Source: an uncultured Gammaproteobacteria bacterium
Lineage (GTDB): Bacteria; Pseudomonadota; Gammaproteobacteria; Nitrosococcales; Methylophagaceae
Assembly: GCA_905181885.1 (NCBI GenBank)
Contig: CAJIZI010000002.1
Location: 1-64,000, forward strand
Length of the DNA stretch: 64,000 bases
Reading direction: 5' to 3'
Positions 1 through 11,496 of the stretch are shown in pieces. A program made the translations under genes and the position numbers. The first letter of the stretch is position 1; every line of letters begins with the position of its first letter. The notes beneath the pieces are model-generated. The model searched no databases. It was not told the origin of the DNA and saw only the letters and a list, made by a program, of their open reading frames with translations.

Positions 1-535
1 CTTCTTTATCGGCTTCGGCATTAAATGCTCTCTCTTCCTCATCAGCAGCGGGCTTTGCATCAAGCTCATTTAAAAATGCAACTGTATCTGGATCGTCAAT
101 TAAATCACCTGCAACTTGCTTTTTATTGCTCAAAAAGCCACGTCTTGCTACAAAATGAAGTAATATTCGCCCAAATTCATGTGGATCTAACTGATGATCT
201 AACGCTTTTGTCCTTAGTTGATAAGGATCTCCTAGTTTATTGAGGATTATTTCTGGTTGCGTATTGCCTTGTAACTCACGCGGCAATAAGTTAAGTAATA
301 CAAGATAGTTCAACATTCTTTCTTTGCGCCGAGCTCGTCTTTGCACAACACGCCTACCAAGTCTCGAGTCGCGACGTTTTACATTTTTTGGAGTAGGTAC
401 TCCTGCAGCTACTGCTTTGGTGAAAATACGGCTACCTATAGCAATGATCCCATCAATATTGCCGGCAGATTCATTAAGTAGTGCCCAACCTATTGAATTG
501 CTTCCTAGATCTAACCCTAAAATTTTCTTGCTCAT
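1..535 (-). CDS. cas9: Cas9 endonuclease, N-terminal part (CRISPR type II, II-C-like; C-terminal part lies outside the window)
   Basis: Manual minus-strand translation from ATG at 533-535 gives 178 uninterrupted codons: MSKKILGLDLGSNSIGWALLNESAGNIDGIIAIGSRIFTKAVAAGVPTPKNVKRRDSRLGRRVVQRRARRKERMLNYLVLLNLLPRELQGNTQPEIILNKLGDPYQLRTKALDHQLDPHEFGRILLHFVARRGFLSNKKQVAGDLIDDPDTVAFLNELDAKPAADEEERAFNAEADKE. RuvC-I (GLDLGSNSIGWAL), Arg-rich bridge helix and LRxKAL...RRGFxSNKK motif present. RBS AGGGAG at 541-546. Confidence 0.95.
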   Translation of the reverse strand, partial: MSKKILGLDLGSNSIGWALLNESAGNIDGIIAIGSRIFTKAVAAGVPTPKNVKRRDSRLGRRVVQRRARRKERMLNYLVLLNLLPRELQGNTQPEIILNKLGDPYQLRTKALDHQLDPHEFGRILLHFVARRGFLSNKKQVAGDLIDDPDTVAFLNELDAKPAADEEERAFNAEADKE

Positions 536-563
536 AACATCTCCCTGTGTATATAATCAAGAT

Positions 564-672
564 TCTTAGTGTAACCGACTAAGGTCTATTGATTGCTTTT
601 CATACTAAGAAATTGTTTTTCGTAGGCTCCGCTTTTAAGCGAGACAGGCCCTCCGCAAGGGGGGTTTTTTAT
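564..672 (+). ncRNA. Candidate tracrRNA divergent from cas9
   Basis: Perfect TATAAT at 552-557 on +, weak TTGCTC -35 at 528-533 (18-nt spacer), internal complementarity TTCTTAGT (564-571)/ACTAAGAA (604-611), hairpin CGCTTTTAAGCG, and CCCTCC-GCAA-GGGGGG-TTTTTT terminator. No protein gene on + upstream needs that terminator. Confidence 0.6.
650..670 (+). terminator. Intrinsic terminator of the candidate tracrRNA
   Basis: ccctccgcaaggggggtttttt: 6-bp GC stem, GCAA tetraloop, U-tract. Confidence 0.7.
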
Positions 673-840
673 TGCCTTTATTTTGATAACACTCCCACAT
701 TTTAATTTCCTTAGTCAGCACCTTTTACTAAACTAAAGCATATATATGATCATAAGTCTAGGCGATAACAGTTCTTATTCTCATCTATAACTAGTGACTA
801 TTAACTCGCTAAATCCTCGCGTACTGCTGCGTAAACTCTG

Positions 841-1260
841 TCATTTAGATAGTTTCAAACGTGAACATTGATAGTCTTTCGTCTGTTTTTCTCGATAGCC
901 TTTGCCTCTCGTTTTGGCTAGATATGATGCTCGATAAATAGCTGCTTGAGCAGTTTCTTCACTATCTACAAAATAGAATGGATTTTTAATTGTTGGAACG
1001 TGGTAGCCACCTGTTGGCCTTTCCCATGCCTGTCTGACCATGTCATTTATCCTTGATGAATGACGTATCAAACCTCCATCTAGGAACAATACCCAGTGAT
1101 AATGCTGGCCTTTACCTTTACCGTGATATTCCCTTGCCCAACAAAATCCGATTTGCTTAAACCCATACTCACGTTTTAGCTTTTGAAATAATCGCTTTCT
1201 AAATAAAGTCATTTGTTTATTGTGATTAAACTCAGTAGGAAGATGAAGGTCAAACCTCAA
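841..1260 (-). CDS. Inovirus Gp2 / YagK-YfjJ-family protein, C-terminal domain (replication-associated)
   Basis: GFCWAREYHGKGKGQHYHWVLFLDGG and following C-terminal sequence resemble the YagK/YfjJ C-terminal (inovirus Gp2) family. ORF start is TTG; the frame stays open upstream to 1569 without an ATG. Confidence 0.6.
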   Translation of the reverse strand: MRFDLHLPTEFNHNKQMTLFRKRLFQKLKREYGFKQIGFCWAREYHGKGKGQHYHWVLFLDGGLIRHSSRINDMVRQAWERPTGGYHVPTIKNPFYFVDSEETAQAAIYRASYLAKTRGKGYREKQTKDYQCSRLKLSK

Positions 1261-1586
1261 TACAAAAACCCTCTTCCATTTAATCCGAGCTATTTCAAAC
1301 TGTTCAATAATTCTTTGTAATATTCCGGTAAAAAGACCGAATTTTTCCCGACCTTTTCCATTATTTATTTGATAGGTTTTGTCATGGTGCGTAATAGAGT
1401 CTTTATCAGTTACTCGCTTCCTGTTTACAGTCCGCTTTAACTTCTTAGGCCTTGGTATTGTTTCTACATTATTAGTATCGTGGGTTACATTCGCTTCGCT
1501 ACTAGATAAAAGAAATAACCATTCATTTTCGTCACTTTCATGAATAGGTAAGTCCCAGCTGTTGAAGCCTCATCTATCCTTTCGTG

Positions 1587-1611
1587 TGTCAAAACCGCCA
1601 TGTCAAAACCG
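1587..1611 (+). repeat. Two 11-nt direct repeats TGTCAAAACCG (14-nt period)
   Basis: tgtcaaaaccg at 1587-1597 and 1601-1611. Confidence 0.6.
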
Positions 1612-1683
1612 TCCTCTGTTTCAGGGGTAGCTTTTGGCATAAGAGCACAACTTGCTATTTAACTTTGGTAATCTACTCATTGC

Positions 1684-1881
1684 TTACGCCTCCCCGTTGC
1701 GAGAAGCCGCTATTCTTTCTTCGAGCCATTGGTCAACCTCAGAGGTTAACCAGCCGCTTGAACGCTCACCCAGTTTGATAGGACTAGGAAACGTCCCTTG
1801 TCTTGCCTTACGGTAAATTGAGCCACCGCTTAAACGGGTAATAAGTTTAAGTTCTTTCAATTTTAATATTTGTTGAGTCAT
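1684..1881 (-). CDS. AlpA-family (CP4-57-like) DNA-binding regulator / excisionase-like protein
   Basis: 65 aa; LITRLSGGSIYRKARQGTFPSPIKLGERSSGWLTSEVDQWLEERIAASR is the typical AlpA wHTH. RBS ggagg upstream. Confidence 0.9.
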   Translation of the reverse strand: MTQQILKLKELKLITRLSGGSIYRKARQGTFPSPIKLGERSSGWLTSEVDQWLEERIAASRNGEA

Positions 1882-1915
1882 GTTAGTGAACCTCCAAGTT
1901 CGTTATTAACATGAC
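1877..1915. promoter_or_regulatory. 9-bp inverted repeat overlapping the alpA start codon (candidate operator)
   Basis: GTCATGTTA (1877-1885) / TAACATGAC (1907-1915). Confidence 0.4.
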
Positions 1916-2048
1916 TACTTATCATAAGCATATAAACTGAATATGAAAGCGAGTTTTTTTAATTATTTTCTTAGTAAGCCACTTTTTTTCTTATTTTCTT
2001 CGTATTTTCTCTTGCAAGCTAAGACCATTTGTTCAAAACCAAATAAAA

Positions 2049-2614
2049 TCAATACTCTATATCATCAAGATCAAGCACCTGCTGTTCAAATGCATTGAGA
2101 AAACTCTTAGAAAGAACCTTTTCTGCATGTTTTTTTGTAGTATCTGATATACGTTGTGTTGTGTCTATCGTCAAATTCATCAGGGAATATCAAATCACCT
2201 AACTGCTTATTTGTAATTTCTTTCTGCTCTACATTAGCTATAAGCTTTAAATCAATATATTGTAGTACCCCACTTTCTCACCCATTTGTCTATAGTTGCT
2301 TGATTGACATCGTTTTTAGGTGTCTGGCTTTCATGGGATAACCTATAGCAGAGAGCCACTCCTTAAAATCTGTTCTATCTGAGTATCAGTTGCGTCTAAG
2401 TCAACAGTAATATGGGCATGACTACATCAGCTCCAGCTCTACGTTCAAGTCATCAAAGGAGCCATAATATTTTGACTTGTTCATCCGTTGCCTTGCCTTT
2501 ACTCACTGCTTCATATGACTCATCAAAAGTGGCAAGTAGTCCATTGTCTACAGCGATTTGAGCAGATGCTGGCAAGACCTCAACAGACTGTGTGTCTCTG
2601 GGATAAGTTAGCAT
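2049..2614 (-). pseudogene. Decayed accessory protein gene (frameshifted remnant, function unassigned)
   Basis: Minus-strand coding-like segments in shifting frames: MLTYPRDTQSVEVLPASAQIAVDNGLLATFDESYEAVSKGKATDEQVKILWLL*, TDFKEWLSAIGYPMKARHLK, YIDLKLIANVEQKEITNKQLGDLIFPDEFDD, TTKKHAEKVLSKSFLNAFEQQVLDLDDIEY*. Confidence 0.4.
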
Positions 2615-2700
2615 CCCTTATAGGAGATAGCTCAGCCTTTAAATAAGTGGCTTCCTCTTTCTATTACAGACACCTACTTCTTTTATTATCTCTAGCAAGC

Positions 2701-4092
2701 TCAGCAGTTCTGCTCAGCTTCGCTGTCTAAGCTGTCCATGATGAATCTTTGTACATGCGTATCTATAGATAATTTCTTATACCACTCTTCCAAGCTCAAT
2801 TCTGGTAAAGAACTATAATTTTCGGGTTTAAACCAGCTTGTATCTAATTTACTCATTTTATTCCCTGCCTTGTTAATAGGGACAACGTTTCCGCCATTGG
2901 CTTGCCCATCTAGATAGTCAGCCCATGCTTGCATCATTTTCTTACGGTCTGGCAAGTATTGCGCGTAGTTGTATGCCCCTCTCACTCCATTCCTTTCAAC
3001 ATGTGCTAATTGGCGTTCTATCCAATCATAGTTGAAGCCCTGCTCATTAAGGTTTGTAGAGGCCATGCTTCTAAAGCCGTGTGCTGTCATTTCCTCTTGG
3101 GTATAACCCATCCGTCTTAGAGCGGCGTTTACGGTGTTTTCACTCATTGGTCTAGTGATTGTTCGACTGCTAGGGAAAACATACTTGTCACGGCCTGTGA
3201 GTGGCTTTATTTGCTCTAGTATCTCTACAGATTGTCTTGATAGCGGTACGATATGTACTACACGACTTTTCATCTTTTCTGCTGATATACGCCATTCAGC
3301 TTTGCTTAGATCGATCTCTGACCACTCTGCCTTTCTTAACTCTCCCGGCCTGACAAATACTAGAGGTGATAATTTTAAAGCTGAGGCTACAATACTTGTG
3401 CCTGTAAAGTCCTGTATGGCTCTCATCAATGCCCCTATTGCAACAGGATCGGTTATTGAAGCATGATGCTTTTCTTTTGTTGGTGGTAATGCTCCCTGCA
3501 AATCAGCACTAGGATCTCGTTCAGCGCGCCCAGTCGATATAGCATATTTAAACACTCGTCCACATATTGACTTGACTCTGTGAGCAGTTTCTAAATGGCC
3601 CTTGCTTTCAATACGTCTTAATATCGTAAGTACTTCGGGTGCTGTTATGTCATTGATATTCTTGTTGCCTAGCCAAGGAAAAACTTTTTGCTCTAATCTC
3701 AATATAGTTTTATCAGCATGGCTATCTGACCAGGTATTGCGAAATTTGATGTGCCATTCACGGGCGACTGTTTCAAAGCTGTCTTTATCCATTACAGATT
3801 GCTTATCAGCTTTTCTTAAATGTGATGGATCTATCCCATCAGATAATGACTGGCGAAAAATATTTCTTTTCATTCTCGCCTGTTTCAGACTTACTTCAGG
3901 GTAAGCACCCAGTGCTAATAATTTCTGTTTACCCTCGTAACGATACTTTAATCTCCACAACTTTCCTCCACTTGGAGCAACCTCAAGATACAAACCCTTT
4001 TCATCAGCCATTCGATACAGTTTGCTGGTGGCTGTACCATCAGGCTTTATCTTTGCTTTGGCGTTCTTTATTTTTACATCAGTTAATGGCAT
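2701..4092 (-). CDS. P4/CP4-57-type tyrosine recombinase (integrase with N-terminal arm-binding domain)
   Basis: MPLTDVKIKNAK...LYLEVAPSGGKLWRLKYRYEGKQKLLALGAYPEVSLKQAR plus catalytic RPGELRKAEWSEID, TAHGFRSMASTNLNEQGF and QLAHVERNGVRGAYN motifs. Starts next to the ssrA 3' end. Confidence 0.95.
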   Translation of the reverse strand: MPLTDVKIKNAKAKIKPDGTATSKLYRMADEKGLYLEVAPSGGKLWRLKYRYEGKQKLLALGAYPEVSLKQARMKRNIFRQSLSDGIDPSHLRKADKQSVMDKDSFETVAREWHIKFRNTWSDSHADKTILRLEQKVFPWLGNKNINDITAPEVLTILRRIESKGHLETAHRVKSICGRVFKYAISTGRAERDPSADLQGALPPTKEKHHASITDPVAIGALMRAIQDFTGTSIVASALKLSPLVFVRPGELRKAEWSEIDLSKAEWRISAEKMKSRVVHIVPLSRQSVEILEQIKPLTGRDKYVFPSSRTITRPMSENTVNAALRRMGYTQEEMTAHGFRSMASTNLNEQGFNYDWIERQLAHVERNGVRGAYNYAQYLPDRKKMMQAWADYLDGQANGGNVVPINKAGNKMSKLDTSWFKPENYSSLPELSLEEWYKKLSIDTHVQRFIMDSLDSEAEQNC

Positions 4093-4155
4093 TTGGTGGT
4101 AGATTCCTTTTTAGGTATCAATCTACCACCAAATCTACCACCATAATTGGTGGTA
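4091..4155. repeat. Inverted-repeat cluster at the int start (candidate arm-type or autoregulatory sites)
   Basis: Perfect 15-bp IR ATTTGGTGGTAGATT (4091-4105)/AATCTACCACCAAAT (4120-4134), followed by 8-bp IR TACCACCA (4136-4143)/TGGTGGTA (4148-4155). Confidence 0.7.
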
Positions 4156-4202
4156 TGTAAAGGAATGTTATATGACGCTATGAAACGACAGGCACAAAAA
4201 AA

Positions 4203-4219
4203 CCCATATATAATGGGCT
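4203..4219 (-). terminator. Probable ssrA terminator
   Basis: Minus strand AAGCCCATTATATATGGGTTTTTTTG. Confidence 0.6.
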
Positions 4220-4255
4220 TTTAAGTTCTTCTTGGTAGGTTGTGAAACCTATATA

Positions 4256-4613
4256 TGGTGGAGATGGCGGGACTCGAACCCGCGTCCGCAAATCCTCCGC
4301 TCTCAGCTCTACATGCTTATTTCATCTATTATTTTAACTAGAAACTACCCGATGAACAGGGAAAATAACTAGCGATCTTGAGAGGTTTCAGACCATCAGT
4401 ACCAAGCATACTTATGGCTTGTCTTATGAGAATTGACCATTGAAACCTAAACGCATAAGCACGGCTTTAGTCAATGGCTAGCAAGCCTAAGCTGCTAGTT
4501 TGTAGTTGTTATCGTTTGCAACTATATTTTGTTAATCTGTTTTACGAGAAGAATTAACATACTCGGCATGCACCTTAAGTTTTGTAACCCACGTCGAAAC
4601 CAGAGTCATCCCC
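4256..4613 (-). ncRNA. ssrA: tmRNA (transfer-messenger RNA)
   Basis: 5' GGGGATGACTCTGGTTTCGACGTGGGTTACAAAACTTAAGGTGCATGCCGAG, tag reading frame GCAAACGATAACAACTACAAACTAGCAGCTTAG (ANDNNYKLAA*, 4487-4519), 3' ...GGACGCGGGTTCGAGTCCCGCCATCTCCACCA. Confidence 0.95.
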
Positions 4614-4671
4614 AAAGTGTTGTACGATATAGACAGTATATGTCAGTGATTGTATCCAAGCCAGACATATG

Positions 4672-5154
4672 TTATTTATTTCTAAAAATTCGAGACTTTT
4701 CACGTGCCCAGTCTTTATCTTTTTCGGTCGCACGTTTATCGTGATGTTGCTTACCTTTAGCCAGTGCTATCTCAAGTTTAGCTCTACCCTTTTTCCAATA
4801 CATAGAAACCGGTACGATGGTATAACCTTTTCTATCAACAGCAGCTACCAAACGGTTGAGTTCGACCCTATTTAATAGTAGTTTACGACGACGAATGTCA
4901 TCAGGATGAATATGAGTTGATGCCGATAACATCGGTGAAATATGGCAGCCGTGTAACCAAGCCTCACCTTGGTGAAGTTGAACATAACTTTCATTCAACT
5001 GACCACGCCCGTCACGAAGGCTTTTGACCTCCCATCCTTCCAACACCAATCCTGCTTCAAAATTATCTTCTAAGAAAAAGTCATGACGCACACGACGATT
5101 TTTAGCAATATTACTGCTTGTACCTTTTTCTTTTTTACTTTTCTTTGTGGCCAT
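4672..5154 (-). CDS. smpB: SsrA-binding protein SmpB
   Basis: [40 protein letters not shown]; 160 aa; adjacent to ssrA. Confidence 0.97.
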
Positions 5155-5393
5155 AGTATCTATTATAAGTGCAAGTTGACTTGAACGCTCGGCTAATCAC
5201 TAATCTAAGTCAATTCTCTGTAGTTCTTGAACTCCTAGTGAATTTAGATCATAAAAACCATTTGTGGAGATAAAAAGATTTGGACTATATAAAATCAGTC
5301 ATTATGTTTATTATATAGCTACATCATCAAGAAATAGCAAAACTCATACGAGGCTGCTATTCCAACTTAAACCCTTAGGTAAAAAAACACAAT

Positions 5394-6755
5394 ATGGCTA
5401 GACCATTACAATCTATTCACGGTCAATGGTCGTCTCGCTGGGCTTTTGTCCTCGCAGCTACGGGTTCTGCCGTTGGGTTAGGGAATATTTGGAAGTTTCC
5501 TTATATCACTGGTGAAAATGGTGGTGGTGCATTTGTTCTAGTTTATCTTGCTTGTCTCGTCTTGATAGGTTTACCCGTAATGATGGCCGAAATTCTCGTG
5601 GGCCGACGAGGCCGTCAAAACCCAGTAAACTCTCTTCATAGTCTTGCAATAGAAGAGAAAACAACCCAAGACTGGCAATATTTAGGCTGGTTGGGCCTGA
5701 CGGCAGGCATTTTAATCATGTCCTATTACAGCGTCTTTGCCGGTCAAGCGCTTGCTTATGTTTTTAGAAACTTTTCTGGTGTATTCGAAGGGGTTACTGC
5801 TGACGGGGCTACTTCTATTTATAACGCCCTTGTTTCTGATCCTGAGCGCCTTTTAGCTTGGCATACAATCTTCGTGATCATCACATCTATAGTCGTTGCT
5901 CGCGGAGTTCAAGGAGGATTAGAAAAAGCTGTTAAATTTTTAATGCCAGCCCTCCTCGCCATCCTATTTTTATTAGTAGGTTACGCTGCAAATACCGGTA
6001 TCTATTTTCAACAAGGAATTGATTTTTTATTCCATGCTGACTTTTCAAAACTTTCTGGTGATTCAGTCCTAACGGCAATGGGTCATGCATTTTTCACACT
6101 CAGCTTAGGCATGGGCGCGATAATGGTCTATGGTTCTTATCTGCCAAAAAGTGCTTCTATCTTAAAAATGACCTTTGCTATTGCCTTCGCCGACACTGCC
6201 GTTGCCTTATTAGCTGGTATGGCTATCTTCCCACTTGTATTCGCTAATGGTTTAGACATTGATGCTGGCCCAGGTCTTATTTTTCACACACTACCCATAG
6301 CTTTTGGTCATATGCAGGGTGGCGCTTTCTTTGGTGGCTTATTCTTTTTACTCTTAGTCTTTGCAGCGTGGAGTTCCGCCATTTCTTTGATAGAACCTGC
6401 TGTAGCGTGGTTAGTTGAAAATAAGGAAGTTAGTCGACGTCGTGCTTCAGTAATAACGGGTTTAGTCACTTGGTCTCTTGGTTTATTAACTGTTTTCTCA
6501 TTTAATATTGCATCAGAATGGACTGTATTTGGTAACACCTTTTTTGATTTACTTGACTACCTCACTGCAAATATTATGTTGCCTCTCGGTGGTTTATTAA
6601 TAGCCATATTTGTAGGTAGAATAATGAGCCAAGATTCAAGTGAAAAAGAACTTAATATTAAACCCCAGTATCTTTATTCAACCTGGCGTTTTCTAATCCG
6701 ATATATTGCCCCCGCTGGCATTATTATTGTCTTTTTAAATATGTTGTGGAATTAA
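5394..6755 (+). CDS. Sodium-dependent (NSS/SNF family) transporter
   Basis: SSRWAFVLAATGSAVGLGNIWKFPYITGENGGGAFVLVYL. Confidence 0.93.
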   Translation: MARPLQSIHGQWSSRWAFVLAATGSAVGLGNIWKFPYITGENGGGAFVLVYLACLVLIGLPVMMAEILVGRRGRQNPVNSLHSLAIEEKTTQDWQYLGWLGLTAGILIMSYYSVFAGQALAYVFRNFSGVFEGVTADGATSIYNALVSDPERLLAWHTIFVIITSIVVARGVQGGLEKAVKFLMPALLAILFLLVGYAANTGIYFQQGIDFLFHADFSKLSGDSVLTAMGHAFFTLSLGMGAIMVYGSYLPKSASILKMTFAIAFADTAVALLAGMAIFPLVFANGLDIDAGPGLIFHTLPIAFGHMQGGAFFGGLFFLLLVFAAWSSAISLIEPAVAWLVENKEVSRRRASVITGLVTWSLGLLTVFSFNIASEWTVFGNTFFDLLDYLTANIMLPLGGLLIAIFVGRIMSQDSSEKELNIKPQYLYSTWRFLIRYIAPAGIIIVFLNMLWN

Positions 6756-7217: not shown

Positions 7218-7542
7218 CCACATAAATATAGAAGTCTGTTACGCTTTACCCGATGAACAACGAATATTTTCACTAGAAGTACCAGATAGTTATGATGTCG
7301 AAGAAGCCATTAAACGCTCCGGCGTCCTCGAGGCCTACCCAGAAATCTCTTTAGACACATTCAAAGTAGGTGTTTTCGGCAAAATATGTAAGCTTAATAA
7401 TAGTTTGCATGATAAAGATCGCATTGAGATCTATCGTAAGCTTATCGCAGATCCGAAAGAATCACGACGCAAGAAAGTTGAAATGGAGCGTAAAAAAGCA
7501 GCTCAAGCCAAACAAAAAGCTAATACAGAATCCAATCTCTAA
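7210..7542 (+). CDS. ratB: RnfH/RatB family protein
   Basis: MASHINIEVCYALPDEQRIFSLEVPDSYDVEEAIKRSGVL; ATG at 7210 overlaps the ratA stop. ORF track start at 7177 is probably too early. Confidence 0.85.
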   Translation: MASHINIEVCYALPDEQRIFSLEVPDSYDVEEAIKRSGVLEAYPEISLDTFKVGVFGKICKLNNSLHDKDRIEIYRKLIADPKESRRKKVEMERKKAAQAKQKANTESNL

Positions 7543-9468: not shown

Positions 9469-9819
9469 ATGGTGATGACCGCAATTGATTTAGTAAAAGA
9501 AGCAAAAAAAACAATCAACGAAGTTAGTGTAGAACAAGCGAATAGGATGATTACCAGTGGTAGTATCGTATTAGATGTTAGGGAAGTAGCTGAATTTGAA
9601 GCTGGTCATATTCCAAATACAGTCCATCTCTCCCGAGGTGTCTTAGAATTTAAAATTTGCGACCATGAAAAATTCCAAGATAGAGATGCCCCCATCCTTA
9701 TTTATTGTCGTAGTGGCGGTCGATCGGCTCTAGCTACTATTGCACTGAAGAAATTAGGGTTTACCGATGTCCATTCAATGGGCGGAGGCTACGAGCTCTG
9801 GAGTCAAACCAAGAGTTAG
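9469..9819 (+). CDS. Rhodanese-like domain protein
   Basis: VLDVREVAEFEAGHIPNTVHLSRGVLEF; IYCRSGGRSALA active-site loop. Confidence 0.93.
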   Translation: MVMTAIDLVKEAKKTINEVSVEQANRMITSGSIVLDVREVAEFEAGHIPNTVHLSRGVLEFKICDHEKFQDRDAPILIYCRSGGRSALATIALKKLGFTDVHSMGGGYELWSQTKS

Positions 9820-9899
9820 GCAATAAGTAGTCCAATTGTTTGTAACATTTGTAGAGTCCACTTGTCATAATGAATAAGTAGTTCTTTTGGAAATTAATT

Positions 9900-10751
9900 A
9901 TGGACACAATCGAATACGCAGTTTCAGGTGCTGGCTTGGGCTTACGCCGTGATTTTATGGGTGAATTAGCTGAACGTAAAGATCAACCTTTTGATTTTTT
10001 AGAAGTCGCACCAGAAAATTGGATGGAGATAGGTGGTGCATTAGGTAAAAAGTTTGCTTATTTTACCGATCGCTACCCCATGATGTGTCACGGGTTATCA
10101 CTATCTCTTGGCAGCCCTGCTCCACTTGATGAACACTTTGTCATTCGTGTCAAAAAGTTTTTAGATAAACATAATATCCGAAGCTATAGTGAACACTTAA
10201 GCTACTGTGGTGATGATGGCCATCTCTATGACTTGATGCCCATTCCATTTACAGAAGAAGCTGTCAGCTATGTAGCTGCCAGGATAAAGCGTGTTCAAGA
10301 CATATTAGAGCGCCAACTCATTATTGAAAATGCATCTTATTATGCTGCTCCTGGTCAAGAAATGACAGAAGCTAACTTTACAAATTCAGTGCTTGCAGAA
10401 GCCGATTGTGGGTTACTTCTAGACGTCAATAATATCTATGTTAATAGTATTAATCACGGTTATGACCCTGTGCAATATATGAAATCAATGCCAACAGAGC
10501 GTATTGCCTATCTCCATATTGCAGGACACTACAGTGAAGAAAATGATTTAAAAGTCGACACTCACGGTAGCGACGTTATTGACCCTGTCTGGGACTTACT
10601 TGAAAAATCTTATCAATGTCATGGAGTCATACCTACACTTCTAGAACGTGACTTTAATATTCCTTCAATTGCATGCCTAACACGCGAAGTTGATAAAATT
10701 CGTCATTATCAATTACAACAGGAACAAAGTCGCATTGCACAAACCTCCTAA
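9900..10751 (+). CDS. DUF692 / MNIO family protein (BufB/MbnB-like)
   Basis: GLGLRRDFMGEL...DFLEVAPENWMEIGG...CHGLSLSLGS...SEHLSYCG...ENASYYAAPGQEMTEANF...LLLDVNNIYVNSINHGYDP...YLHIAGHY. Confidence 0.92.
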   Translation: MDTIEYAVSGAGLGLRRDFMGELAERKDQPFDFLEVAPENWMEIGGALGKKFAYFTDRYPMMCHGLSLSLGSPAPLDEHFVIRVKKFLDKHNIRSYSEHLSYCGDDGHLYDLMPIPFTEEAVSYVAARIKRVQDILERQLIIENASYYAAPGQEMTEANFTNSVLAEADCGLLLDVNNIYVNSINHGYDPVQYMKSMPTERIAYLHIAGHYSEENDLKVDTHGSDVIDPVWDLLEKSYQCHGVIPTLLERDFNIPSIACLTREVDKIRHYQLQQEQSRIAQTS

Positions 10752-11496
10752 AATACCAAAATTTCAGCAAGTTCAATATCAGTTCTCTGCACATATTCGC
10801 GATCCAGAGAATATCGCAATGCCTGACGATATAGAACAGAGACGAATGAACATCTATACAGAATTATTTTATAACAATATTGATAACTTTTTATCTTCGG
10901 GCTTCCCTGTACTCAAAAAAATTATCTCTGAAAAGTCATGGAATGTAATGGTTCGCGACTTTATGGTGAAACACCAATCAAGATCTCCATTATTTAATGA
11001 GATGGCCTATGAGTTTTTGACTTACCTTAACAATGAGCGTGAAAGTTCTAGCGATCCAGTTTTTATCAAAGATCTCTGTCATTACGAATGGGTTGAACTT
11101 GCACTCAGTACTACTGATAGCCAAGTCTGCCCAATCAATTTTGATGACCAACAGGACTATTTAGCAATTCAAATTAAGACATCACCGCTGGCGTGGCCAC
11201 TATCCTACCCCTTTCCAGTACACCATATCTCACCTGAATTTCAACCTAGTGAGCCTAGTGAAGTGCCCATATTTTTACTCGTTTATCGAAACCTAGATGA
11301 TGAAGTCTTATTTTTAGAGCTCAACCCTATGAGCGCTAAGTTGATAGATTTACTTAATGAAGGGAAAACGGGCCAACAAGCAGCACAACAACTTGCCGAT
11401 GAATTACAGCATCCCAATCCAAAGGTTGTCATAGAGGGTGCTAGAGAGTTGATCCATGACTGGATTAAACGAAGCATTTTAATTTACCCTTCATAA
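10690..11496 (+). CDS. DUF2063 family protein (BufC-like partner of MNIO enzymes)
   Basis: FQQVQYQFSAHIRDPENIAMPDDIEQRRMNIYTELFYNNIDNFLSSGFPVLKKII; overlaps and follows the DUF692 gene. The true start may lie downstream of 10690. Confidence 0.85.
   Translation: MIKFVIINYNRNKVALHKPPKIPKFQQVQYQFSAHIRDPENIAMPDDIEQRRMNIYTELFYNNIDNFLSSGFPVLKKIISEKSWNVMVRDFMVKHQSRSPLFNEMAYEFLTYLNNERESSSDPVFIKDLCHYEWVELALSTTDSQVCPINFDDQQDYLAIQIKTSPLAWPLSYPFPVHHISPEFQPSEPSEVPIFLLVYRNLDDEVLFLELNPMSAKLIDLLNEGKTGQQAAQQLADELQHPNPKVVIEGARELIHDWIKRSILIYPS

What the first reader, a model, noticed from the sequence alone, without database searches (positions are those of the whole stretch)
1..4256. Possible mobile-element-borne Cas9: ssrA-integrated P4/CP4-57-like island with cas9
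Order from ssrA 3' end leftward: integrase (start facing ssrA), decayed gene, AlpA regulator, Gp2/YfjJ-type gene, tracrRNA candidate, cas9. The ssrA-int-alpA-yfjJ-like arrangement mirrors E. coli CP4-57. I saw no second copy of the ssrA 3' sequence between 1 and 4255, so the far attachment site may lie left of cas9, which would place cas9 inside the element. CRISPR-Cas9 on such an island could act in inter-element competition or phage exclusion. Cargo status is inference.
Basis: inference. Interest (0 to 1): 0.8.

Follow-up and report, generated by a model that had tools for sequence, protein, structure and literature searches.

The report
CRISPR-Cas9 carried by tmRNA-gene island
Next to the tmRNA gene of an unnamed gammaproteobacterium sits the integrase end of a small mobile island that very probably carries a CRISPR-Cas9 immune system; a complete version of such an island, with both ends visible, was found in an unrelated bacterium, which shows that Cas9 of this family can travel on small satellite-like elements.

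Summary
From ssrA leftward: intact integrase, decayed gene, AlpA, YfjJ-type gene, tracrRNA, cas9. The window is the start of contig C2, so cas9 is cut after 178 codons. No other cas9 piece, cas1, CRISPR repeat or true far att site was found in this assembly. The exact ssrA-3' copy on contig C3 is a second, strain-variant ssrA locus. The tracrRNA is real: conserved upstream of all 12 related cas9 genes, it pairs with a relative's repeat. Cas9 occurs in this genome only, of 63 in the order. ssrA in congeners is either empty or occupied by related integrases; a complete congener island (about 12.5 kb) carries a small terminase but no cas9. The decisive support is L025, a Pseudomonadales MAG: a 12.1-kb ssrA island bounded by identical 28-bp repeats, holding int, AlpA, small terminase, cas9-cas1-cas2 and a 10-spacer array. 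L034 shows tRNA-Ser, int, AlpA, cas9. Against: one congener has a tracrRNA relic 205 bp from ssrA, beyond a native-type terminator, so a resident cas9 neighbour remains possible. Cargo status here about 0.75. Cas9 on integrase islands is known; Cas9 on a small satellite-like ssrA island appears new.

The parts
2..535 (-). cas9, first 178 codons (type II-C-like), cut by the contig edge; RuvC-I motif and arginine-rich bridge helix present
   Evidence: TIGR01865 E 1.1e-35; PADLOC Cas9; 68-76% identical to Cas9 of L024-L034; alignment
569..671 (+). tracrRNA: anti-repeat, nexus and terminator, divergent from cas9 and about 31 bp from its start
   Evidence: Conserved 26-129 bp (nearly all 26-37 bp) upstream of all 12 cas9 homologues; duplex with the L025 repeat -45.9 kcal/mol against a mean of -18.2 and a lowest of -28.3 for 500 shuffles
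841..1260 (-). YfjJ/YagK C-terminal-domain gene (rolling-circle Rep-like G2P match); reading frame opens further upstream without a start codon, apparently frameshifted
   Evidence: PF11726 E 1.5e-10, PF23343 E 2.4e-8; frames
1684..1881 (-). AlpA-type excisionase/regulator
   Evidence: PF05930 E 6.3e-16; PHROG excisionase; 58-69% identical to AlpA of congener ssrA islands L087 and L088
1900..2700 (-). decayed gene between AlpA and int; the integrase frame runs into a DUF6387-like start
   Evidence: stops in all frames; DUF6387 E 9.9e-5 (below the curated cut-off) at the int C-terminus; alignment
2701..4092 (-). tyrosine integrase of the ssrA-targeting type
   Evidence: PF13356, PF22022, PF00589; 68-73% identical to integrases behind ssrA in congeners; catalytic residues
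4256..4613 (-). tmRNA gene (ssrA), integration site; its 3' end (4256-about 4282) is the near attachment site
   Evidence: ARAGORN and Rfam RF00023; att identity by homology with L025 and L088

Best explanation
The stretch 1-4256 is the integrase-proximal end of a small integrative island in ssrA, and it carries a type II-C-like CRISPR-Cas9 system as cargo. Inferred mechanism: the integrase recombines the 3' end of ssrA with the island's att site, restoring an intact ssrA with an island-encoded terminator; AlpA regulates excision; YfjJ may start replication; and, as the relatives' small terminase suggests, the intact element may be packaged by a helper phage. The Cas9 system, with its own tracrRNA, would defend host and island against phages or rival elements. 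Shown here: the parts, the tracrRNA, the ssrA occupancy polymorphism, and a homologous att-bounded ssrA island with a whole cas9 operon and array. Inferred: that cas9 lies inside the att sites in this genome, mobility, packaging and targets. This copy looks partly decayed and may no longer move.
For: L025: a 28-bp ssrA-3' repeat at 7465 and 19606 bounds 12.1 kb holding cas9, cas1, cas2, 11 repeats, small terminase, AlpA and int. L034: tRNA-Ser, int, AlpA, cas9 in one direction. No att-like sequence or native ssrA terminator lies between cas9 and the YfjJ gene or AlpA. Cas9 is absent from the other 62 genomes of the order, including all 28 congeners. Congener ssrA is either empty with a native-type terminator or occupied by related integrases, with one complete island, L088. 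Close Cas9 relatives are scattered over many genera.
Against: The far att site is not visible; the contig ends inside cas9, and no further cas9, cas1 or repeat is in the assembly. Island genes are partly decayed. Congener G004 has a tracrRNA relic just outside a native-type ssrA terminator without any integrase. Most close cas9 relatives with readable context (L024, L026, L028, L030-L032) stand in the chromosome with no integrase alongside, as do the more distant ones. None of 80 viral contigs with related integrases carries cas9. The assembly mixes strains at this very spot.
Confidence: 0.75

Rival explanations
1. Resident neighbour: a chromosomal cas9 locus stood beside ssrA in this lineage; an ssrA island inserted between ssrA and cas9, and its far end with the att site later eroded, so cas9 only looks like cargo.
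For: In congener G004 a lone tracrRNA (E 4e-28) lies 205 bp from ssrA, beyond a native-type terminator, beside an IS3-like fragment and with no integrase. The island genes in the window are partly decayed. Most family members are chromosomal.
Against: No congener has cas9 at or away from ssrA. The G004 tracrRNA is closer to that of L025 (93%) than to the window's (90%), which suggests separate arrivals. No att or native terminator is left between cas9 and the YfjJ gene. The L025 arrangement directly shows the cargo state in a relative.
Confidence: 0.18
2. Assembly join: the cas9 end and the integrase end come from different molecules or strains and were joined wrongly.
For: The assembly holds two strain versions of the ssrA locus with different left arms, and the contig ends inside cas9.
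Against: The int-ssrA junction recurs in congeners, and an int-AlpA-cas9 neighbourhood recurs in L034 and, in another order, in L025. Base composition is even across the stretch, 0.38-0.42 against 0.40 for the rest.
Confidence: 0.05
3. Dead remnant (compatible with the cargo reading): an old immobile island with an inactive Cas9 system, of no present function.
For: Decayed gene, frameshifted YfjJ gene, integrase fused to a remnant; in L025 cas1 and cas2 are frame-split; in G004 only the tracrRNA is left.
Against: Integrase catalytic residues, AlpA, tracrRNA and the visible cas9 part are intact and conserved. The L025 repeats are all alike with 10 distinct spacers.
Confidence: 0.3

Closest known systems
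CRISPR-Cas on genomic islands of Vibrionaceae (PMC6360697)
   Same: Integrase-bearing islands carrying CRISPR-Cas; type II-B Cas9 systems on islands next to tRNA genes in Vibrio and Salinivibrio; VPI-6 carries type I-F and excises.
   Different: There type II-B with cas4, in V. natriegens on a 30-kb region at tRNA-Met; here type II-C-like, at ssrA, and in the complete relative a 12-kb element with a small terminase.
CampyICE1 of Campylobacter (PMC8743540)
   Same: A mobile element carrying a type II-C Cas9.
   Different: A 70-129 kb conjugative element with Cas9 alone; here a small island without visible conjugation genes, and with cas1 and cas2 in L025.
Small phage satellites: PICI, PICMI, P4-like, VEIME, tycheposon (PMC6092414, PMC10803314, PMC8628076, PMC11389934)
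   Same: Small size, integrase, AlpA; small terminase in L025 and L088; no capsid genes recognised; satellites are known to carry antiviral cargo (PMC9122126).
   Different: No satellite carrying a CRISPR-Cas9 system turned up in the literature searches. Helper dependence is not shown here.
E. coli CP4-57 cryptic prophage
   Same: ssrA site, integrase, AlpA, YfjJ-type gene (gene types from Pfam; the E. coli order is from memory).
   Different: Carries Cas9; no further CP4-57 genes seen in the 4.3 kb available.

Membership tests
ssrA-integrated genomic island | tyrosine integrase gene directly behind the ssrA 3' end | tested here: met
ssrA-integrated genomic island | second ssrA-3' direct repeat bounding the element | tested here: inconclusive
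   not in the window or contig ends; contig ends inside cas9; present in relatives L025 and L088
ssrA-integrated genomic island | empty site in related genomes | tested here: met
   at least ten congeners have ssrA followed by a native-type terminator and no integrase
type II-C CRISPR-Cas | cas9 with tracrRNA | tested here: met
   cas9 only in part
type II-C CRISPR-Cas | operon cas9-cas1-cas2 without csn2 or cas4, plus array | tested here: inconclusive
   beyond the contig edge here; cas1, cas2 and array follow cas9 in L025, L028 and L032
small phage satellite (PICI/PICMI/P4-like) | integrase and AlpA-type regulator | tested here: met
small phage satellite (PICI/PICMI/P4-like) | packaging gene (small terminase) without structural genes | tested here: inconclusive
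   found in L025 and L088; not readable in the window
small phage satellite (PICI/PICMI/P4-like) | induction and packaging by a helper phage | not testable with these tools
   needs culture work
P4/CP4-57 family | P4-type replication and capsid-control genes | not tested
   only 4.3 kb of the element is available

The most novel reading that the evidence does not exclude
A lineage of small (about 12 kb) helper-dependent satellites that use ssrA or tRNA sites carries complete, self-updating CRISPR-Cas9 systems, so that a satellite rather than the host or a conjugative element owns adaptive immunity and spreads Cas9 among gammaproteobacteria, with cas9 lost and gained at ssrA repeatedly.
Probability: 0.3. 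Interest if true: 0.75.

Novelty: new variant of a known kind. Interest (0 to 1): 0.55.

Why it matters
It gives a concrete vehicle for the horizontal spread of type II-C Cas9, whose scattered distribution is usually noted but seldom tied to a defined element. If satellites carry adaptive immunity, their spacers would record which phages and rival elements they fight, which makes the question of whom MGE-borne CRISPR defends directly testable.

Tried and rejected
The exact ssrA-3' copy at C3:2006-2026 looked at first like the far att site; it is a second ssrA-smpB-SLC6 locus, 6 differences in about 2 kb, followed by what looks like the decayed start of another integrase, so it was rejected as the far end. 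A search for an ssrA-3' fragment followed by the native terminator in the genome found nothing. IMG/VR was searched for the L025 Cas9, the anti-repeat and the tracrRNA nexus without a relative; 80 viral contigs with related integrases gave AlpA in 32 but no cas9. Phage records hold only distant Cas9 (at most 27%) and the best plasmid matches listed are at 27-29%. A 17-nt match of one L025 spacer to the congener satellite L088 covers only part of the spacer and is not taken as a target. The Cas9 tree on the N-terminal part does not put the three island copies together, but support is weak. No structure prediction was made; a truncated Cas9 would not add to the argument.
Full report
What is in the window. 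The window is bases 1-64000 of contig C2 (94.7 kb) of a three-contig, 1.5-Mb assembly, rated 99.7% complete. From the tmRNA gene (4256-4613, minus strand) leftward lie a tyrosine integrase (2701-4092), a decayed stretch, an AlpA-type regulator (1684-1881), a YfjJ/YagK-type gene (841-1260), a tracrRNA (about 569-671, plus strand) and the first 178 codons of cas9 (535-2), all but the tracrRNA on the minus strand. The integrase keeps its catalytic residues but its frame runs past the usual end into a remnant of a DUF6387-like gene; the YfjJ frame has no start codon upstream and seems frameshifted.

The tracrRNA is real. The anti-repeat AGTGTAACCGACTAAGGTCTAT, nexus and terminator are conserved upstream of all twelve cas9 genes examined (the window's included), nearly always 26-37 bp from the start codon and divergent from it. 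The window copy pairs with the CRISPR repeat of L025 at -45.9 kcal/mol, against a mean of -18.2 and a lowest of -28.3 for 500 shuffled repeats. In this genome the sequence occurs once; there is no CRISPR repeat, no cas1, and no further cas9 in the assembly. The missing part must lie in the gap left of C2 (inference).

The apparent second attachment site. An exact copy of the ssrA 3' end exists at C3:2006-2026. It belongs to a second ssrA-smpB-SLC6 stretch that matches window 4256-6286 with 6 differences, diverges beyond ssrA, and is followed by what looks like the decayed start of another integrase. The simplest reading (inference) is two strains in one assembly with different left arms at ssrA. 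It is not the far end of the cas9 island.

Sibling genomes. Of 29 genomes of the genus, 27 gave ssrA or smpB matches. At ssrA, two states are seen. In at least ten, ssrA is followed by a hairpin of the type ACCACC-GGTGGT with a T run and no integrase. In others it is followed by a different terminator and an integrase: 68% and 73% identical to the window's in G025 and G001, partial in G003, a fragment in G007, and a more distant one (36%) in G018. G025 (L088) holds a complete island of about 12.5 kb, from ssrA to an ssrA-3' fragment followed by the native-type hairpin. It contains integrase, S24 repressor, AlpA, small terminase, a DUF5681 protein and a weak tape-measure-like protein, and no cas9. 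None of the other 62 genomes of the order has a Cas9 of this family. The cas9 of the window is therefore most likely a recent, local acquisition at a site of high turnover.

Relatives of the Cas9. A scan of 84,980 species genomes gave eleven relatives at 68-76% identity in scattered groups: Nitrosomonas, Pseudomonadales, Methylococcales, Cycloclasticus, Hydrogenovibrio, Thiotrichaceae, Methylophilaceae and one MAG labelled archaeal. Those with a readable context mostly stand in the chromosome without an integrase; cas1 and cas2 follow in L026, L028 and L032 and an array in L028 and L032, while L024 has a transposase in their place. Two are different. L025 (Pseudomonadales MAG, CALJVT010000002.1) is an ssrA island. 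Identical 28-bp copies of the ssrA 3' end at 7465 and 19606 bound 12,141 bp that hold int, AlpA, a small terminase, a DUF4917/PDC-S21 candidate defence gene, cas9 (1030 aa), cas1, cas2 and an array of 11 repeats; beyond the far repeat comes a host-type terminator. Its cas1 and cas2 are frame-split, by decay or sequencing error. L034 (Methylophilaceae, JAPKBG010000010.1) reads tRNA-Ser, int, an unknown gene, AlpA, two genes, cas9, all in one direction, and again runs off its contig inside cas9. The window, L025 and L034 thus show the same association at two kinds of integration site, with different internal order.

Evidence that points the other way. In congener G004 a lone tracrRNA (109 bp, E 4e-28) lies 205 bp from the ssrA 3' end, beside an IS3-like fragment (by eye), with no cas genes; it lies beyond a native-type ssrA terminator. 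Read strictly, that places it outside an ssrA island, and allows a model in which cas9 was a neighbour of ssrA and the island in the window inserted between them. Against this, no att-like sequence or native hairpin remains between cas9 and the YfjJ gene in the window, and the G004 tracrRNA is closer to that of L025 (93.4%) than to the window's (89.7%), which suggests separate arrivals at ssrA. By chance a relic would fall that near ssrA in a 2.4-Mb genome with odds of roughly 1 in 4,000 (own estimate), so the link between this Cas9 family and ssrA is itself supported.

How it most likely works. The integrase recombines an island site with the ssrA 3' end and leaves ssrA intact; AlpA controls excision. 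The complete relatives carry a small terminase but no recognised capsid or large-terminase genes, which suggests helper-dependent satellites. Cas9 with its own tracrRNA and, in L025, its own adaptation genes and array, would give the element sequence-specific immunity that serves host and element alike. Mobility, packaging and targets are inferred. Three L025 spacers searched in IMG/VR and three in phage records gave no target.

Known or new. CRISPR-Cas on integrase islands is known, including type II-B Cas9 at tRNA genes in Vibrionaceae (PMC6360697), and type II-C Cas9 on a large conjugative element (PMC8743540). Satellites are known carriers of antiviral cargo (PMC9122126). In seven literature searches no CRISPR-Cas9 on a small terminase-bearing ssrA island was found; subscription papers and preprints are mostly outside that library. 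I therefore call it a new variant of a known kind, with interest 0.55, held down by the contig edge and by the unresolved neighbour model.

Noticed in passing
L072 1188-1296 (congener G004, C80:22145-22253): Lone tracrRNA relic beside an IS3-like fragment, 205 bp from ssrA and beyond its native-type terminator; no cas genes nearby.
   Followed up: yes
L088 5003-5191; L076, L061, L070, L075 behind ssrA: Several congeners carry a small unit of about 160 bp behind ssrA (CAAAATTGTCAGG ... GAGCAATTCCCGCCG-CTCCACCA) that ends in a copy of the ssrA 3' end; it may be a mini-element that uses the same site.
   Followed up: partly
G000 C3:1-2163 against window 4124-6286: The assembly holds two versions of the ssrA-smpB-SLC6 locus with different left arms, so strains are mixed at this point.
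   Followed up: yes
L025 7699-9315: The L025 island also carries a DUF4917 protein (PADLOC candidate PDC-S21) and an unknown 183-aa gene between the far att site and cas9; a second defence gene in the same island.
   Followed up: partly
L025 13065-14318: cas1 and cas2 of the L025 island are each split between reading frames, although the repeats of the array are all alike.
   Followed up: partly
window 9469-11496: Rhodanese-like gene, then a protein that looks like the DUF692/MNIO family and a likely partner gene (by eye), as in RiPP-type clusters.
   Followed up: no
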